From a virus, in the IMG/VR virus record IMGVR_UViG_3300018062_000002, positions 1 through 22,778 of that record: a DNA stretch of 22,778 nt. One strand, written 5' to 3'. The translations under genes and the position numbers were made by a program. Under the pieces are notes generated by a model, which worked only from the letters and a program-made list of their open reading frames with translations, had not been told where the DNA came from and searched no databases. Shown here piece by piece: positions 1 to 13,657 of the stretch (position 1 is its first letter; each line of letters opens with the position of its first letter).

Positions 1-58
1 CGATCAGCTTGCCAAGCTGAGACGGGTCGCGCGGACGTTGGGGACGACGGCGTGCCAT
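1..58 (-). CDS. Small basic protein, 5' fragment (cut by window edge)
   Basis: Reading the minus strand from the ATG at 58 gives MARRRPQRPRDPSQLGKLI before the window ends. This N-terminus (basic MARRRP, then RDPxQLxKxI) resembles a family of small basic proteins of unknown function that I recall from Bradyrhizobium, Rhodopseudomonas and relatives. Those members continue with Gly/Lys/Ala-rich, histone-H1-like sequence, but that part is not in the window. The gene diverges from the phage late operon. A weak promoter-like pair on the minus strand (TTGCGC, 16 bases, CATACT) would place transcription start almost on the ATG, so the mRNA could be nearly leaderless. It may be a host gene flanking a prophage or a phage gene. 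Only 19 residues are visible, so the call depends on the match to memory. Confidence 0.5.
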   Translation of the reverse strand, partial: MARRRPQRPRDPSQLGKLI

Positions 59-138: not shown

Positions 139-167
139 TTGACGGCCGCGGCCACGCCTGATATATT
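139..167 (+). promoter_or_regulatory. Strong sigma70-type promoter of the late operon
   Basis: The -35 box TTGACG (139-144) is followed by exactly 17 bases and the -10 box TATATT (162-167). TG at 159-160 makes an extended -10 (TGnTATATT). Each hexamer matches consensus at five of six positions. The predicted start is near 174, only about 25 bases upstream of an intrinsic terminator, so the default product would be a short RNA of roughly 65-70 bases. It points towards the terminase and is the best promoter I can see for the late genes. Confidence 0.72.
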
Positions 168-198
168 GACCGCGTCCCCCTTTGGACTTTTTCTCCCT

Positions 199-241
199 GC
201 GGCCCCGCTCCATCCCGTCCTTGAGTGGGGCCGCTTTTTTT
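199..241 (+). terminator. Intrinsic terminator just upstream of the terminase gene
   Basis: GCGGCCCC (199-206) pairs perfectly with GGGGCCGC (227-234). Four more inner pairs (207-210 with 223-226, one of them G-U) extend the stem to 12 bp with a 12-base loop. Seven T residues (235-241) follow at once. There is no T tract in the other orientation, so it acts only on + strand transcripts. No + strand gene ends here; the only obvious transcript it could stop is the one from the promoter at 139-167. The U tract ends 19 bases before the terminase ATG. Confidence 0.8.
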
Positions 242-260
242 GGCACTGTCGCCGGCCAGC

Positions 261-2138
261 ATGGCAGACGACCCCCTGATCATCGACGAGCCGCCGGCGG
301 ATACCGCCGCGGCCGTGCAGTTGCCGGCGATCGATGTCGCTCCGTTCCCGCGCGAGCGCTTCCTGAATTGGTGCCGAAGCCTCAAGGTCAACACCAAGGA
401 CCATGGCATCCGGCCGTTCGCGCTGTTAGGCACGCAGCGCTACATTCTTGATGAAATCTGCAAGGGCATCGCCGAGGGCGTCACCACCTTCGTTTTCCTC
501 AAGGCGCGCCAGATCGGAGCGTCCACATTCTTCATCGCGCTCGACCTGTTCTGGGCGTTCGAGCACGCCGGTCTGTCCGGCGCCTTCGCCACCCACACCG
601 ATCAATCGAAAAATCAGTTCCGCCAGATCATCCGCGTGTTCTTCGCCCACCTGCCCAAGACCCACAAGGTCAAACCGCAGAAAGAAAACCGCGACATGCT
701 GATCCTGAAAAACGACAGCATGTTCGTCTATCTGGTCGCCGGCATCAAACAGAAGGAAGTGAGCAACCTCGGCCGCTCCGGTGCGTTTAATTTCCTGCAT
801 GCAACCGAGGTGGCGTTTTGGGGTTCGGAGGAAGATAAGAAGGAATTGTTCGCCACGCTGTCGACGCACTACCCGCACCGCATGACGGTCACGGAAAGCA
901 CCGCCAATGGCTTCAACCATTTCGAGGAACAATGGAACGCCGCCAAGCAATCGCCGACACAGCGCGCGATTTTCGTCGGCTGGTGGCGCAACGAGCTCTA
1001 TGCGTTCGCCAAAAATCATCCGTGGTATCGCATCTACATGCCGGAAGGAGAAGCCACGCCGCTGTCGCCGCTCGAGCGCCGGCGCGCCCGGCTGGTCAAG
1101 GAGCAGTACGGGTTCCAGATCGCTAGCGAGCAGATCGCCTGGTATCGCTGGAAGCTGACCGAGCAGACCGACGGCGACCAGGCCAAGATGGACGAGATGT
1201 TCCCTTGGCTCGAGGAAGATGCCTTTGTCGCCACCGGCGCCAAGTTCTTCACCAACGAGAGCCTGACCGAGGCGATGCGCGCCGCGCGCAAGATGCCGCT
1301 CCTGCCCTACCGCTATCGCGTGAGCGAGCGCTGGGAGGACTTGCTGGTGCTGCCGGCACAGCAGAAAGGGGCCGAACTCAAGCTGTGGCAGGAAGCGGTG
1401 GCGAACGGCGTCTATGCGATCGGCTGCGACCCGGCCTATGGCTCGTCCGACGACGCCGATCGCACCGTCGTTCATGTCGGCCGCTGCTTCGCCGATCGCC
1501 TCATCCAGGTCGCCGAATTCTGCTCGCCGCGGGTGTCGACCTATCAGTGTGCGTGGATACTGGCGCACCTGTGCGGCTATTATCGCAACTGCGTGGTCAA
1601 TCTGGAAATCACCGGACCGGGCACGGTGGTGTTCGACGAATTGAACCGGCTGCGCGTCGAACTCGCCAATGCCGATGTTCCCGAGAAGGGCGCGGCCGAT
1701 CTGCGCAGCGTCTTGTCGAACATGAAGCATTATCTCTACCGCAAGCCGGACAATCCGACCGGCGGCCTTGCCTTCCAGTGGCGCACCACCCAGGAAACCA
1801 AGACCGTCATCATGAACGGCTTCCGCGACGCCTTCGAGCTTGCCCGGCACATCGTCGCCTCGATGTATTGCCTCGAGGAAATGAAATCGGTGGTGCTCGA
1901 AGGCGGCTCGATCCACGCCGAGGGCCGCAAGAAGGACGACCGGGTGATGGCTGCGGCGCTGGCGCACGAGGCATGGCGGCGATGGGTGCAGCCGCGCATG
2001 CACGCCTCGGGCCTTACCTATGACAGAGTGATGAAGGACGACGTCACCGGCGGCCCGTCGAAGCTCGAGAAGATCGCGATCGACTATCTGCGGCGCGCTG
2101 GCGTGCTCAAGGCGGGACAGAACATCGGCGCACCATGA
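261..2138 (+). CDS. terL: Phage terminase large subunit (packaging ATPase/nuclease)
   Basis: This 625-residue protein is the motor that cuts concatemeric phage DNA and pumps it through the portal. The N-terminal ATPase domain has a deviant P-loop, KARQIGAST (residues 81-89), in which the usual Lys before Ser/Thr is Ala and a Lys sits at the front of the loop. A Walker-B-like LHATEVAFW follows, with E183 the likely catalytic acid. The C-terminal RNase-H-like nuclease shows GCDPAYG (D390), LEITGPG (E449) and KKDDRVMAAAL (D559/D560), which fit the three acidic metal-binding positions. I chose ATG 261 because the in-frame GTG at 225 lies inside the terminator hairpin. Neither start has a good Shine-Dalgarno, so the true start is less sure than the identity. 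The stop overlaps the next start (ATGA). Confidence 0.95.
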   Translation: MADDPLIIDEPPADTAAAVQLPAIDVAPFPRERFLNWCRSLKVNTKDHGIRPFALLGTQRYILDEICKGIAEGVTTFVFLKARQIGASTFFIALDLFWAFEHAGLSGAFATHTDQSKNQFRQIIRVFFAHLPKTHKVKPQKENRDMLILKNDSMFVYLVAGIKQKEVSNLGRSGAFNFLHATEVAFWGSEEDKKELFATLSTHYPHRMTVTESTANGFNHFEEQWNAAKQSPTQRAIFVGWWRNELYAFAKNHPWYRIYMPEGEATPLSPLERRRARLVKEQYGFQIASEQIAWYRWKLTEQTDGDQAKMDEMFPWLEEDAFVATGAKFFTNESLTEAMRAARKMPLLPYRYRVSERWEDLLVLPAQQKGAELKLWQEAVANGVYAIGCDPAYGSSDDADRTVVHVGRCFADRLIQVAEFCSPRVSTYQCAWILAHLCGYYRNCVVNLEITGPGTVVFDELNRLRVELANADVPEKGAADLRSVLSNMKHYLYRKPDNPTGGLAFQWRTTQETKTVIMNGFRDAFELARHIVASMYCLEEMKSVVLEGGSIHAEGRKKDDRVMAAALAHEAWRRWVQPRMHASGLTYDRVMKDDVTGGPSKLEKIAIDYLRRAGVLKAGQNIGAP

Positions 2139-2961: not shown

Positions 2962-4688
2962 TCGTCCCGCAGAAAGACCCCTACCGCGAGGAAAAGGTGC
3001 TGGCCGTGCGCGACGCCTGCCGGGTGTCGCTCGAAGAACGCCGGCAGATGTATTCGCGCCGCCGCGCCTTCTTCATGTTCGGCTGCGACGATAATCGCGA
3101 GGTTCGCTACAATCGTCTGTTCGCCCACTCCGACCTGGTCGCCTCGTTTCTCTATTCGCCCGACCACGCCATCTACAATCTGTCGGCGCCGCTCAATTCG
3201 CCCGACGACGTGGTGGCGCAGGCCCTGGCGCTGCAGGACGATTGGAACAACGAATTTCGCGACAGCGGTCTTGCCTACCAGTATGGCACGGCGCTGTTGT
3301 GGGCGCTGGTCTATGACAGCATGTTCTTGAAACTCGGCTGGAACGACGAGCGCGACAAATTGCTCGGCCGCATCGTGCTGCCGCATTCGTTCGGCGTCTA
3401 TGACGAAAGCGAGCCCGATCTCGACGCGCAAGAGGCGTTCCTGCACATCTACCGCGTCCCTTATGACAACGCGGTGATCCGCCTCTATCGCGCCGGCCGC
3501 CAGGCCGACGTGAAGCGGCTCGGCGTCGCCACCGGCTCCAACATCGAGGATTTGCCGCCGGTGCTCAAGCAGTTGTTGATCTCGCAGACCGGCGGCATGA
3601 ACATTTCCGGGAATATCATGGGCCAGGCGCCGCTCGATATTCAGCCGATGGTGCGCTACGAGGCCAAATCCGACATCGAGACGGTCGAGTTTCACGAATT
3701 GTGGATATGGAACGATGTCAGCGAGGACTATACGACCTTCATCATCGCCGCGCCCGACATTCTGTTGACCGACACGCGTGAGGCGATCAGCGCGCGCAAA
3801 GCCGCCAAAGGGGGCGACAAGATCGAGCACCTGTCCGACAGCAACGACTTTCTGCCGCAGGAACATGCCTTCGTGCCGATCACGCCCTATCCGTTGACCG
3901 ATTATTTCTGGGGCGAGAGCCATTGCGAGCGGTTGATCCCGCTGCAGACCTGGACGACCGAGCGGCTGGATCAGATCGCGGAAATCCTGGAGCAGCAGGT
4001 CGACCCGGCCAAGGTGTTCTCCGGGTTCATGGGCCTGTCGGACGAGAAGGCCGGTGCGCTCGGCGGCCCGAACACCTGGGTGCTCGACGCGCTGCCCGGC
4101 GCCAAGGTCGAACGGCTCGACCCGAAGATGCCCGAGGATTTGTTCGCCGAAGTCAAGGAGATCGGCGCCATGTTCCTCGAAGCCTCCGGCCTCACCGAGA
4201 CGGTCATCGGCAAGGGCGAGAAGAACGTGCGCGGCGGCGGCCACTCGAAGCAGCTGGCGCTCACCGGCTCCGGGCGCATCCGCAAGATCGCCGTCGGCCT
4301 GGAGCAATCGCTGGTGCAGCTCGGCGATCTCGGCCTCAAGTTGAAGATGCGCAACGACCCGAACGAGATTTTGCTGCCCGGCGGCGGCAAGTTTCTCCCC
4401 GCGCAACTGGCCGCCGACGACTGGAACATGCGCATCGCCGGCCACTCGCATTCGCCGCTGTTCCTCGACGAAAGCCGCGAGCTCGCCGCCGTGCTGTTGA
4501 AGGCGGCGGCGATCGACCGCGAGATGTTTGTGCGCTTGATTAACCCGCCGCAACGTGACACCATCATCACGTCGCTGCGCGCGCGGGAGAAAGTCGAAGC
4601 CGCGCAGCGCGCTCTCAACCCCGCCGCCCAGGGCGGCGGAAAGGCAAGGAAAGGAGAGACACATGGCGCGCAAAAAGGGCCGTCATAA
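2958..4688 (+). CDS. Portal protein (head-tail connector)
   Basis: A 576-residue protein with the size and composition of podovirus portals. As a dodecamer at one capsid vertex it would form the DNA entry channel, dock TerL during packaging and later carry the adaptor. Supporting segments are the strand-rich HELWIWNDVSEDYTTFIIA region (from residue 246), the WGESHCERLIPLQ segment (from 318) that resembles the portal signature before the stem helices, and a Gly-rich loop GKGEKNVRGGGHS (from 418). Long amphipathic helices at the C-terminus fit a wing/crown. ATG 2958 overlaps the previous stop (ATGA). The reading frame is open further upstream, but that part is antiparallel noise inside another gene. 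The 3' end overlaps a 14-codon mini-ORF. Confidence 0.88.
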   Translation: MIVPQKDPYREEKVLAVRDACRVSLEERRQMYSRRRAFFMFGCDDNREVRYNRLFAHSDLVASFLYSPDHAIYNLSAPLNSPDDVVAQALALQDDWNNEFRDSGLAYQYGTALLWALVYDSMFLKLGWNDERDKLLGRIVLPHSFGVYDESEPDLDAQEAFLHIYRVPYDNAVIRLYRAGRQADVKRLGVATGSNIEDLPPVLKQLLISQTGGMNISGNIMGQAPLDIQPMVRYEAKSDIETVEFHELWIWNDVSEDYTTFIIAAPDILLTDTREAISARKAAKGGDKIEHLSDSNDFLPQEHAFVPITPYPLTDYFWGESHCERLIPLQTWTTERLDQIAEILEQQVDPAKVFSGFMGLSDEKAGALGGPNTWVLDALPGAKVERLDPKMPEDLFAEVKEIGAMFLEASGLTETVIGKGEKNVRGGGHSKQLALTGSGRIRKIAVGLEQSLVQLGDLGLKLKMRNDPNEILLPGGGKFLPAQLAADDWNMRIAGHSHSPLFLDESRELAAVLLKAAAIDREMFVRLINPPQRDTIITSLRAREKVEAAQRALNPAAQGGGKARKGETHGAQKGPS

Positions 4689-4707
4689 GCGCCGCGGTCG
4701 GCGCTGA
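4663..4707 (+). CDS. Mini-ORF: 14-residue arginine/lysine-rich peptide
   Basis: ATG 4663 opens a 14-codon frame, MARKKGRHKRRGRR, ending at TGA 4705-4707. Nine of 14 residues are Lys or Arg, plus one His. It overlaps the last 26 bases of the portal gene in another frame. The reason to take it seriously is its ribosome site: AAGGAAAGGAGAG lies just upstream, among the purest Shine-Dalgarno sequences in the window, although it is inside the portal coding frame. No other start nearby would use that site. A nucleic-acid-binding micropeptide is an inference only. It could also be chance. Confidence 0.45.
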   Translation: MARKKGRHKRRGRR

Positions 4708-5281: not shown

Positions 5282-5294
5282 TGGAGAAAAAGCC

Positions 5295-5489
5295 ATGACC
5301 ACCTACGTCAGCGCCGGCAACCTGCTCTCGGGCTTCAATGCCGAAAGCCTGATGGCCGTCGAACTGCGCGTGCTGTCGAACCTGATGCAGCGCGAGATGG
5401 CGAACGAGTCGCAGGACGAATTGAGAATTCTGCGCAACGACCAGGCGTTCGAGCTCGGCATCGCACCGCCTGTCATACCGGGTAACTAA
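5295..5489 (+). CDS. Small conserved-looking phage protein, unknown
   Basis: A 64-residue protein (starts MTTYVSAGNLLSGFNAESLM) with a GGAG ribosome site before the ATG. It is predicted almost wholly helical, with alternating hydrophobic and charged residues (MAVELRVLSNLMQREMAN) and no Cys, His cluster or membrane segment. It sits in a run of small genes between portal and scaffold. Size and location suggest a minor head or assembly factor, but nothing in the sequence fixes a role. Confidence 0.68.
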   Translation: MTTYVSAGNLLSGFNAESLMAVELRVLSNLMQREMANESQDELRILRNDQAFELGIAPPVIPGN

Positions 5490-12825: not shown

Positions 12826-13178
12826 TGCCGTTATTTTTTCACGATACCTGCTTGTTCGGCGACCCGGTCGGCTTCTCGATCTACTGCCAGGAACACGCCT
12901 ACGAGCATGTGCAATTCCTGAAACTCTATCAGGCCAAGTCGCCGCCGGTGCTGCTGCCGGACTATGATCTAGGCTCATGGGAGAACGAAAAATCCTTCGT
13001 CACCGAATGGCTGGCGACACACGAGGCGGTGCATGAGCAGTTGCGGGCGTTGACCGGCGTCTCAGGTGTCAATCTGGCCGATGTTGACTTGACCAAGGAA
13101 GCCGAGTGGTATGTGTGGATGGACGACCATCGCGCCGAGCATGGTGCCTTGCGCGCGGCCCTGGGGATCACAAGCTGA
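12825..13178 (+). CDS. Small His-rich phage protein with three HxxxH motifs
   Basis: A 117-residue protein started within a TGATG overlap. It contains three H-x3-H motifs: HAYEH (24-28), HEAVH (66-70) and HRAEH (102-106), with the acidic segment VNLADVDLT between the last two. I recall a family of small phage tail-module proteins with the same H-x3-H and (N/D)L-x-x-VD pattern, function unknown. The arrangement fits a helical bundle in which paired histidines face each other, perhaps binding metal. It is followed by the acetyltransferase gene through another TGATG overlap, so the two may be functionally linked. Confidence 0.75.
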   Translation: MPLFFHDTCLFGDPVGFSIYCQEHAYEHVQFLKLYQAKSPPVLLPDYDLGSWENEKSFVTEWLATHEAVHEQLRALTGVSGVNLADVDLTKEAEWYVWMDDHRAEHGALRAALGITS

Positions 13179-13657
13179 TGGACGCGATCACCCGCCCCGC
13201 GGTCACGTTCCAGCCGGAAAAATTTTCCGATGTCTATGAGGAATGTGCGGCATTGGCGCCCGCGCACTATCAAGAAATTGCCGCCTATCAGGATATTTAC
13301 AGTCTGAATTGGAACACTGCGGCCTATAAAAAAGCAGAGGATGCCGACCAAATAGCCGTTATTGCGGCACGTTCTGGCCTGCGGTTGGTCGGCTATTTTA
13401 TTATGTTCATCATGCCTCATCCTCACTATGTCGGCACCTTGATTGCGACGGAGGACATTCATTATTTGGTGCCGGAATTCAGGAGGGGATGGACAGGAGC
13501 AAAATTGATCAGGGCCGCCGAGGCACACGCGCGCGAGCGTGGGTGCAAGGTCATATTTAGTCGCACCAAAGCCCGCCTGCACCATGATGCTTTTTACCGC
13601 AGGCTTGGCTATGAGCTGATGGACCTGACTTACACGAAACGGCTTGACGGAGATTAA
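13178..13657 (+). CDS. GNAT-family N-acetyltransferase
   Basis: A 159-residue GNAT protein that would transfer acetyl from acetyl-CoA to an amine. Beta4 (DIHYLVPEFRRG, residues 93-104) leads into the acetyl-CoA loop RRGWTGAKLIRAAEAHARERG (loop 102-109), followed by KVIFSRTK and the C-terminal FYRRLGYELMDLTYTKRL typical of GNATs. The loop departs from the classical RxxGxG/A but matches phage GNATs I recall near tail genes. ATG 13178 overlaps the upstream stop (TGATG); an earlier in-frame start would overlap the previous gene. The DNA is visibly AT-richer than its flanks (27 G+C of 60 at 13261-13320), hinting at separate origin. The substrate is unknown; virion-protein or host-protein modification are both possible. 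Confidence 0.88.
   Translation: MDAITRPAVTFQPEKFSDVYEECAALAPAHYQEIAAYQDIYSLNWNTAAYKKAEDADQIAVIAARSGLRLVGYFIMFIMPHPHYVGTLIATEDIHYLVPEFRRGWTGAKLIRAAEAHARERGCKVIFSRTKARLHHDAFYRRLGYELMDLTYTKRLDGD

What the first reader, a model, noticed from the sequence alone, without database searches (positions are those of the whole stretch)
139..260. Promoter immediately followed by a terminator in front of the late operon: antitermination-type control
A near-consensus extended -10 promoter (139-167) would start RNA near 174, and a 12-bp stem with seven T residues ends it near 241, only 19 bases before the terminase ATG. No + strand gene lies between. This is the arrangement of lambda pR'-tR', where a constitutive short RNA is made and the Q protein lets polymerase read through into the late genes. 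The whole packaging and virion operon here would then depend on an antiterminator encoded outside the window. The short RNA (about 65-70 bases) might also act by itself. No such switch is known to me for this group of phages.
Basis: partly seen in the sequence, partly recalled or inferred. Interest (0 to 1): 0.78.

Follow-up and report, generated by a model that had tools for sequence, protein, structure and literature searches.

The report
Small-RNA gene heading phage packaging operon
Just before the DNA-packaging genes of a soil phage lies a tiny gene for a ~68-base RNA that resembles a well-known regulatory RNA (alphaR8) of the phage's probable hosts, and many unrelated phages of such bacteria carry the genuine alphaR8 RNA in the same place, so it may both regulate by itself and act as the gate to the late genes.

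Summary
The promoter and terminator are real and far from chance. Signals this strong occur about once per million bases of strand in related phages, and here both lie within 110 bp. The RNA between them resembles the alphaproteobacterial sRNA family alphaR8 (MmgR/SisA-D, Rfam RF00519): 4-bp 5' hairpin, exposed anti-Shine-Dalgarno 10-mer TTTTCTCCCT (canonical TTTCCTCCCT), terminator. The full-length match is 30.1 bits, E 1.2e-4, but below the family cut-off of 41 and without the usual spacer, so I call it alphaR8-like. About 65 distinct relatives with this terminase lack the unit upstream of it, so it is not conserved in the phage group; one relative (G004) carries its own alphaR8-like RNA elsewhere. 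Canonical alphaR8 genes occur in over 100 other viral contigs. They often sit directly before the packaging operon, across several unrelated terminase types, mostly behind an upstream terminator, ~20 bases before the first gene, and with U-tracts clearly weaker than chromosomal copies (longest T-run 3.5 vs 6.8). The packaging genes there, and here, seem reachable only by reading through the sRNA terminator. Best reading: an sRNA gene doubling as leader of the late operon, a pR'-tR'/StxS-like layout. A dedicated antiterminator remains unproven. I found no description of this arrangement.

The parts
1..58 (-). 5' end of a divergent gene (MARRRPQRPRDPSQLGKLI..., cut by the contig end), KGG-type small protein
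   Evidence: sequence; relative G013 has a full-length homologue on the - strand 3.1 kb upstream of terminase
139..167 (+). extended -10 sigma70-type promoter TTGACG-17-TATATT, TG at 159-160
   Evidence: rarity
174..241 (+). short RNA (about 68 nt), alphaR8-like
   Evidence: fold; RF00519 match at 169-248, 30.1 bits, E 1.2e-4; start at 174 is inferred from the distance to the -10
174..187 (+). 5' hairpin GUCC(174-177)/GGAC(184-187), equivalent of alphaR8 GCCC/GGGC with a compensatory pair
189..198 (+). exposed anti-Shine-Dalgarno 10-mer TTTTCTCCCT (alphaR8: TTTCCTCCCT)
199..241 (+). intrinsic terminator, 12-bp stem + T7
261..2138 (+). terminase large subunit, first gene of the packaging/virion operon; ATG 19 bases after the T-run, no clear Shine-Dalgarno sequence
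   Evidence: phrog_2 E 3e-16; start by inference
5283..5292 (+). possible own-mRNA target: GGAGAAAAAG at the ribosome site of the gene starting at 5295, perfect complement of 187-196
   Evidence: only 1 of 634 SD-type sites in the phage group has a 10-base match; weak lead

Best explanation
The unit at 139-241 is a small-RNA gene of the alphaR8 type placed at the head of the packaging operon. The promoter makes a ~68-nt RNA whose exposed CUUUUUCUCCCU stretch, probably with host Hfq, blocks Shine-Dalgarno sites of host and perhaps phage mRNAs. The same RNA is the leader of the late operon: polymerases that pass its terminator, by partial readthrough or with help of a factor not seen here, transcribe terminase and virion genes. 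Shown here by sequence: promoter, RNA fold, 10-mer, terminator, lack of room for another promoter, and the recurrent alphaR8-terminator-packaging layout in other phages. Inferred: transcription, Hfq binding, targets, and readthrough as the route to late expression.
For: Rfam RF00519 full-length match 169-248, 30.1 bits, E 1.2e-4 against all families; hairpin and 10-mer aligned column by column. With the terminator left out, a model of the alphaR8 5' half still ranks this site first in the whole window, though weakly (8.0 bits, E 0.78). A relative in the same phage group, G004, has TTTCCTCCCTA followed by a terminator with T6 (5'-half model 19 bits, best of 1.03 Mb). The canonical core GGGCGTTTCCTCCCTA is in at least 120 viral stretches, and the core reads as real alphaR8 (142 genomes: about 40 hits, reversed control 0). 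Large same-strand ORFs just downstream are terminase large subunits in about 30 of 54 cases (HK97-, GpA-, phrog_2- and Terminase_3-type), against 4-6 of 47 upstream or opposite (Fisher p about 1e-6 to 1e-5). In 17 of 25 such loci a terminator lies upstream, mostly ~50-60 nt before the alphaR8 core. The gap from alphaR8 terminator to the first gene is ~20 nt at the median. L334, and prophages of B. elkanii USDA 76 and B. diazoefficiens USDA 122, show the layout. U-tracts of packaging-linked copies are shorter than chromosomal ones (mean longest T-run 3.5 vs 6.8, p 1e-9).
Against: The match is below the family's curated cut-off (41 bits), lacks the AGACUU spacer, and part of its score is the terminator; chance hits of 26 bits occur once in a 5-Mb genome. 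The 5' half alone is not significant by itself. No relative with the same terminase has the unit at this place. The window's U-tract is strong (T7), unlike the weakened ones of other phages. The host is not known; an alphaproteobacterium is inferred.
Confidence: 0.55

Rival explanations
1. Lambda-type late switch: a constitutive promoter and terminator, with a phage antiterminator (Q-, P7- or gp82-like) that lets polymerase read into the late operon. The short RNA is only a by-product and its likeness to alphaR8 is convergence.
For: Promoter-terminator-late gene layout; strong T7 terminator that would need active override; no other promoter before terminase.
Against: No Q family in 26 relatives; no clear -10-like pause element in the first transcribed bases; relatives do without the unit; the alphaR8-like features are then unexplained.
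Confidence: 0.2
2. Stand-alone sRNA gene (a moron) that merely landed before terminase; late genes are transcribed from an unrecognised phage promoter or by weak readthrough of no regulatory meaning.
For: Complete unit with own promoter and terminator; absent from close relatives; alphaR8 genes are mobile among phages and lie elsewhere in most viral contigs, e.g. G004.
Against: The strong bias of phage alphaR8 genes to the site just before packaging genes and their weakened U-tracts there; no space for another promoter at 241-261.
Confidence: 0.2
3. Leader/attenuator without trans-acting role: the terminator tunes terminase expression, and nothing else.
For: Position and strength of the terminator; terminase starts 19 bases later.
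Against: No alternative antiterminator fold and no leader peptide in 174-241; does not explain the alphaR8-like 5' half.
Confidence: 0.05

Closest known systems
alphaR8 sRNA family (Rfam RF00519 suhB/mmgR; MmgR of Sinorhizobium meliloti, SisA-D of Caulobacter crescentus)
   Same: Short 5' hairpin, exposed anti-Shine-Dalgarno 10-mer directly behind it, intrinsic terminator with U-tract, 65-80 nt (PMC12559287)
   Different: Window RNA has one change in the 10-mer, no AGACUU spacer, a changed hairpin, and 30.1 bits against a cut-off of 41; it lies on a phage before terminase rather than beside a host N-formylglutamate amidohydrolase gene
StxS, the Hfq-binding sRNA made from PR'-tR' of Stx phages (PMC7873438), and lambda 6S RNA
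   Same: Short RNA between a promoter and a terminator at the border to the late genes; in StxS the by-product of late control is itself a regulator
   Different: No sequence relation; here no Q gene is known, the RNA is ~68 nt, and it resembles a host sRNA family
Canonical alphaR8 genes before packaging operons of other phages (L334, L299, L314, L404, L405 and others, found here)
   Same: Same order and spacing: promoter, alphaR8-type RNA, terminator, ~20 nt, packaging genes
   Different: Those RNAs are canonical and their U-tracts are weak; the window RNA is divergent with a strong U-tract

Membership tests
alphaR8 (RF00519) | covariance-model score at or above the gathering cut-off of 41 bits | tested here: not met
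   30.1 bits, E 1.2e-4, full length 1-77
alphaR8 (RF00519) | anti-SD 10-mer TTTCCTCCCT | tested here: inconclusive
   9 of 10 (TTTTCTCCCT), at the expected place right after the hairpin
alphaR8 (RF00519) | 4-bp 5' hairpin directly before the 10-mer | tested here: met
   GUCC/GGAC instead of GCCC/GGGC, i.e. a compensatory pair
alphaR8 (RF00519) | AGACUU-type spacer between 10-mer and terminator | tested here: not met
   absent; terminator stem follows at once
alphaR8 (RF00519) | Hfq binding and repression of mRNAs by the 10-mer | not testable with these tools
   needs experiment
lambda-type pR'-tR'/Q late control | promoter and terminator before the late operon with no gene between | tested here: met
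lambda-type pR'-tR'/Q late control | Q-type antiterminator gene | tested here: inconclusive
   none in 26 relatives (PF03589, PF06530); the other half of this genome is not held
lambda-type pR'-tR'/Q late control | sigma-dependent pause element (-10-like) just after the start site | tested here: not met
   read from the sequence: only GACTTT at 185-190 has A and T at the needed positions, 2 of 6 matches to TATAAT
StxS-type late-leader sRNA | stable Hfq-bound RNA made from the late promoter | not testable with these tools
   needs RNA-seq and Hfq pull-down

The most novel reading that the evidence does not exclude
Phages of alphaproteobacteria have repeatedly placed alphaR8-type sRNA genes, or evolved alphaR8-like RNAs, as the leader of their packaging operons. 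One promoter then yields an anti-Shine-Dalgarno sRNA when transcription stops and the late mRNA when it does not, which ties takeover of host translation to the late switch.
Probability: 0.35. Interest if true: 0.85.

Novelty: new variant of a known kind. Interest (0 to 1): 0.7.

Why it matters
alphaR8 is present in nearly all alphaproteobacteria, and in the species studied it controls carbon-related genes through one 10-mer. Its presence on over a hundred viral contigs, often directly before the packaging genes and with a weakened terminator, would give this phage world a late switch and a host-control RNA in one, comparable to StxS of Stx phages but built from a host sRNA family. It makes the open question of how such phages turn on late genes directly testable in Bradyrhizobium prophages whose host strains can be grown.

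Tried and rejected
(1) Conservation in the phage group: no promoter+terminator unit in the 400 nt before terminase in ~65 distinct relatives; DNA of 60-262 finds no homologue in 28 records nor the composite pattern in viral contigs. (2) phages, blastn of 1-2500: none; plasmids: only short, scattered matches. (3) Rfam at gathering threshold: nothing; the alphaR8 likeness appears only in e-value mode. (4) Q families and T7-type RNA polymerase in relatives: none, and the polymerase search had no ringing control, so it says nothing. (5) The promoter-micro-ORF-terminator units after portal in relatives were considered as homologues of the unit and rejected: they code for a 14-15 aa basic peptide; the window RNA has no ORF. 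(6) A first U-tract comparison with the best-scoring host alphaR8 genes was biased by selection and was replaced by a pattern-selected host set. (7) The 10-base complement to the ribosome site at 5295 is kept only as a weak lead.

Full report
WHAT WAS CHECKED. The window is a whole IMG/VR virus record of 22,778 bases, linear and without end repeats. Related contigs are mostly 38-45 kb, several with 97- or 127-base end repeats, so about half of this genome is missing. The left part holds a divergent minus-strand gene (starts at 58), then 200 bases without a gene, then terminase (ATG 261) and the packaging and virion genes. The promoter at 139-167 and terminator at 199-241 are exactly as described. 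Against 2.04 million strand-bases of 27 related contigs, extended-minus-10 promoters of this quality and terminators of this quality each occur twice, and neither occurs in 100 simulated windows. Two such rare signals 31 bases apart are not chance.

CONSERVATION IN THE PHAGE GROUP. Terminase and capsid searches gave 33 and 80 loci. Of about 65 distinct sequences upstream of terminase none has the unit. Relatives have + strand small genes running into terminase; two have a terminator 0.58-0.70 kb upstream that closes the previous operon. So the unit is not an inherited late switch of this phage group.

WHAT THE RNA IS. At the gathering threshold Rfam finds nothing. In e-value mode, 169-248 matches RF00519 (suhB/mmgR, the alphaR8 sRNA family) over its full length, 30.1 bits, E 1.2e-4 over all 4227 families. 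The alignment shows a 4-bp hairpin (GUCC/GGAC; canonical GCCC/GGGC, a compensatory change), then UUUUCUCCCU (canonical UUUCCUCCCU), then a G-C-rich terminator with U7. The AGACUU spacer is missing. In single-genome searches a 26-bit hit occurs by chance once in a 5-Mb Acidobacteria genome, so 30 bits at this one spot is unlikely by chance, but it is not a clear family member. Without the terminator, a model of the alphaR8 5' half gives 8.0 bits here: first place in the window, but E 0.78. I therefore call it alphaR8-like. In the same phage group G004 carries GCGTTTCCTCCCTA followed by a terminator with T6 near its contig end (19 bits with the 5'-half model, the best of 1.03 Mb).

WHAT alphaR8 DOES. 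alphaR8 RNAs occur in all alphaproteobacteria except Rickettsiales. SisA of Caulobacter is an abundant Hfq-bound RNA that represses many mRNAs through the 10-mer, which has an anti-Shine-Dalgarno signature; the sponge RNA CrfA sequesters it under carbon starvation. Sinorhizobium meliloti with MmgR lacking the 10-mer over-accumulates PHB (PMC12559287).

PHAGE alphaR8 GENES. The canonical core GGGCGTTTCCTCCCTA is in at least 120 viral stretches (the scan stopped at its limit). The core is specific: in 142 alphaproteobacterial genomes it gives about 40 hits, and the reversed control none. In 116 distinct viral loci, large ORFs that start within 2.5 kb downstream on the same strand are terminase large subunits in about 30 of 54 cases (phrog_9 19, phrog_15 6, phrog_2 5), from HK97-, GpA-, T4/P22- and Terminase_3-type families. 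Upstream or opposite-strand large ORFs are so in 4-6 of 47 and are mainly replication initiators and primases. Fisher p is about 1e-6 to 1e-5, with the caution that related phages are counted more than once. So alphaR8 often marks the border between early and late genes. Prophages of B. elkanii USDA 76 and B. diazoefficiens USDA 122 show alphaR8 - HNH - two small genes - terminase. L334 has a 77-bit canonical alphaR8 and the small terminase gene about 40-50 bases after its T-run.

THE READTHROUGH ARGUMENT. In 17 of 25 packaging-linked loci a terminator lies upstream, mostly ~50-60 nt before the alphaR8 core, and the first packaging-side gene begins ~20 nt after the alphaR8 terminator at the median. 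In those loci the only room for a promoter is that of alphaR8 itself, so the packaging genes must be reached through its terminator. Fittingly, U-tracts of these copies are weakened: longest T-run 3.5 on average, against 6.8 in chromosomal copies picked by the same core (p 1e-9) and 4.4 in other viral copies (p 0.003). The window has the same geometry (19 bases to ATG, no promoter in between), but a full T7. Either its late genes need a factor, or a few percent of readthrough suffices. Any + strand transcript that starts before base 199 must cross this terminator.

LAMBDA COMPARISON. Lambda pR'-tR' and StxS of Stx phages (PMC7873438) are the closest functional parallels: a short RNA made at the late promoter, which in StxS is an Hfq-bound regulator. 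But no Q family was found in 26 relatives, the early transcribed region has no good -10-like pause element, and the missing half of this genome cannot be searched. The antiterminator is therefore open, not shown.

POSSIBLE TARGETS. The single-stranded stretch 187-196 is perfectly complementary to GGAGAAAAAG at the ribosome site of the gene starting at 5295. Among 634 SD-type sites of the phage group only one has 10 bases of complement. This is a lead, not a result.

LITERATURE. In the open-access library no paper was found that describes alphaR8/mmgR RNAs on phages or before terminase genes; subscription papers, among them the phylogenetic study of alphaR8, could not be read.

VERDICT. Observation confirmed; interpretation partly supported. 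The feature is best read as an alphaR8-like sRNA gene doubling as the leader of the late operon. The general finding, alphaR8 sRNA genes with weakened terminators heading packaging operons of alphaproteobacterial phages, is stronger than the evidence for this single divergent copy.

Noticed in passing
window 4663-4707 (+); L062 7158, L091 8419, L024 ~12888: A 14-15 aa Arg/Lys-rich micro-ORF right after portal (MARKKGRHKRRGRR; MARRHKRGRRRHKR; MARRHRRGKRRHKR; MKRKHKRGRRRGRRK). In the three relatives it is followed by a strong terminator and preceded by promoter-like sites; in a dozen relatives a strong + terminator lies at this place.
   Followed up: partly
L403 (PP395640), L407 (OM681334): Two 'Microcystis' phages carry alphaR8 RNA sequence (94% over 36 nt in Mwe-JY08, weaker in yong2), which hints that their true host is an alphaproteobacterium rather than the cyanobacterium.
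   Followed up: no
L183 4271-4355 (G004 contig end): alphaR8-like RNA with exact 10-mer followed by two strong terminators in tandem in a relative of the window phage; function of the second terminator unknown.
   Followed up: partly
window 1-58 (-): KGG-type small gene (MARRRPQRPRDPSQLGKLI...) divergent to the late operon; a full homologue in G013 lies 3.1 kb upstream of terminase on the - strand.
   Followed up: partly
viral alphaR8 loci, alignment A3: One contig with the 16-base alphaR8 core encodes an RNA replicase beta-chain (PF03431), i.e. an RNA-phage contig; chance or a real anti-SD element was not examined.
   Followed up: no
window 13106-13657 (+): GNAT-type acetyltransferase gene inside the virion operon.
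   Followed up: no
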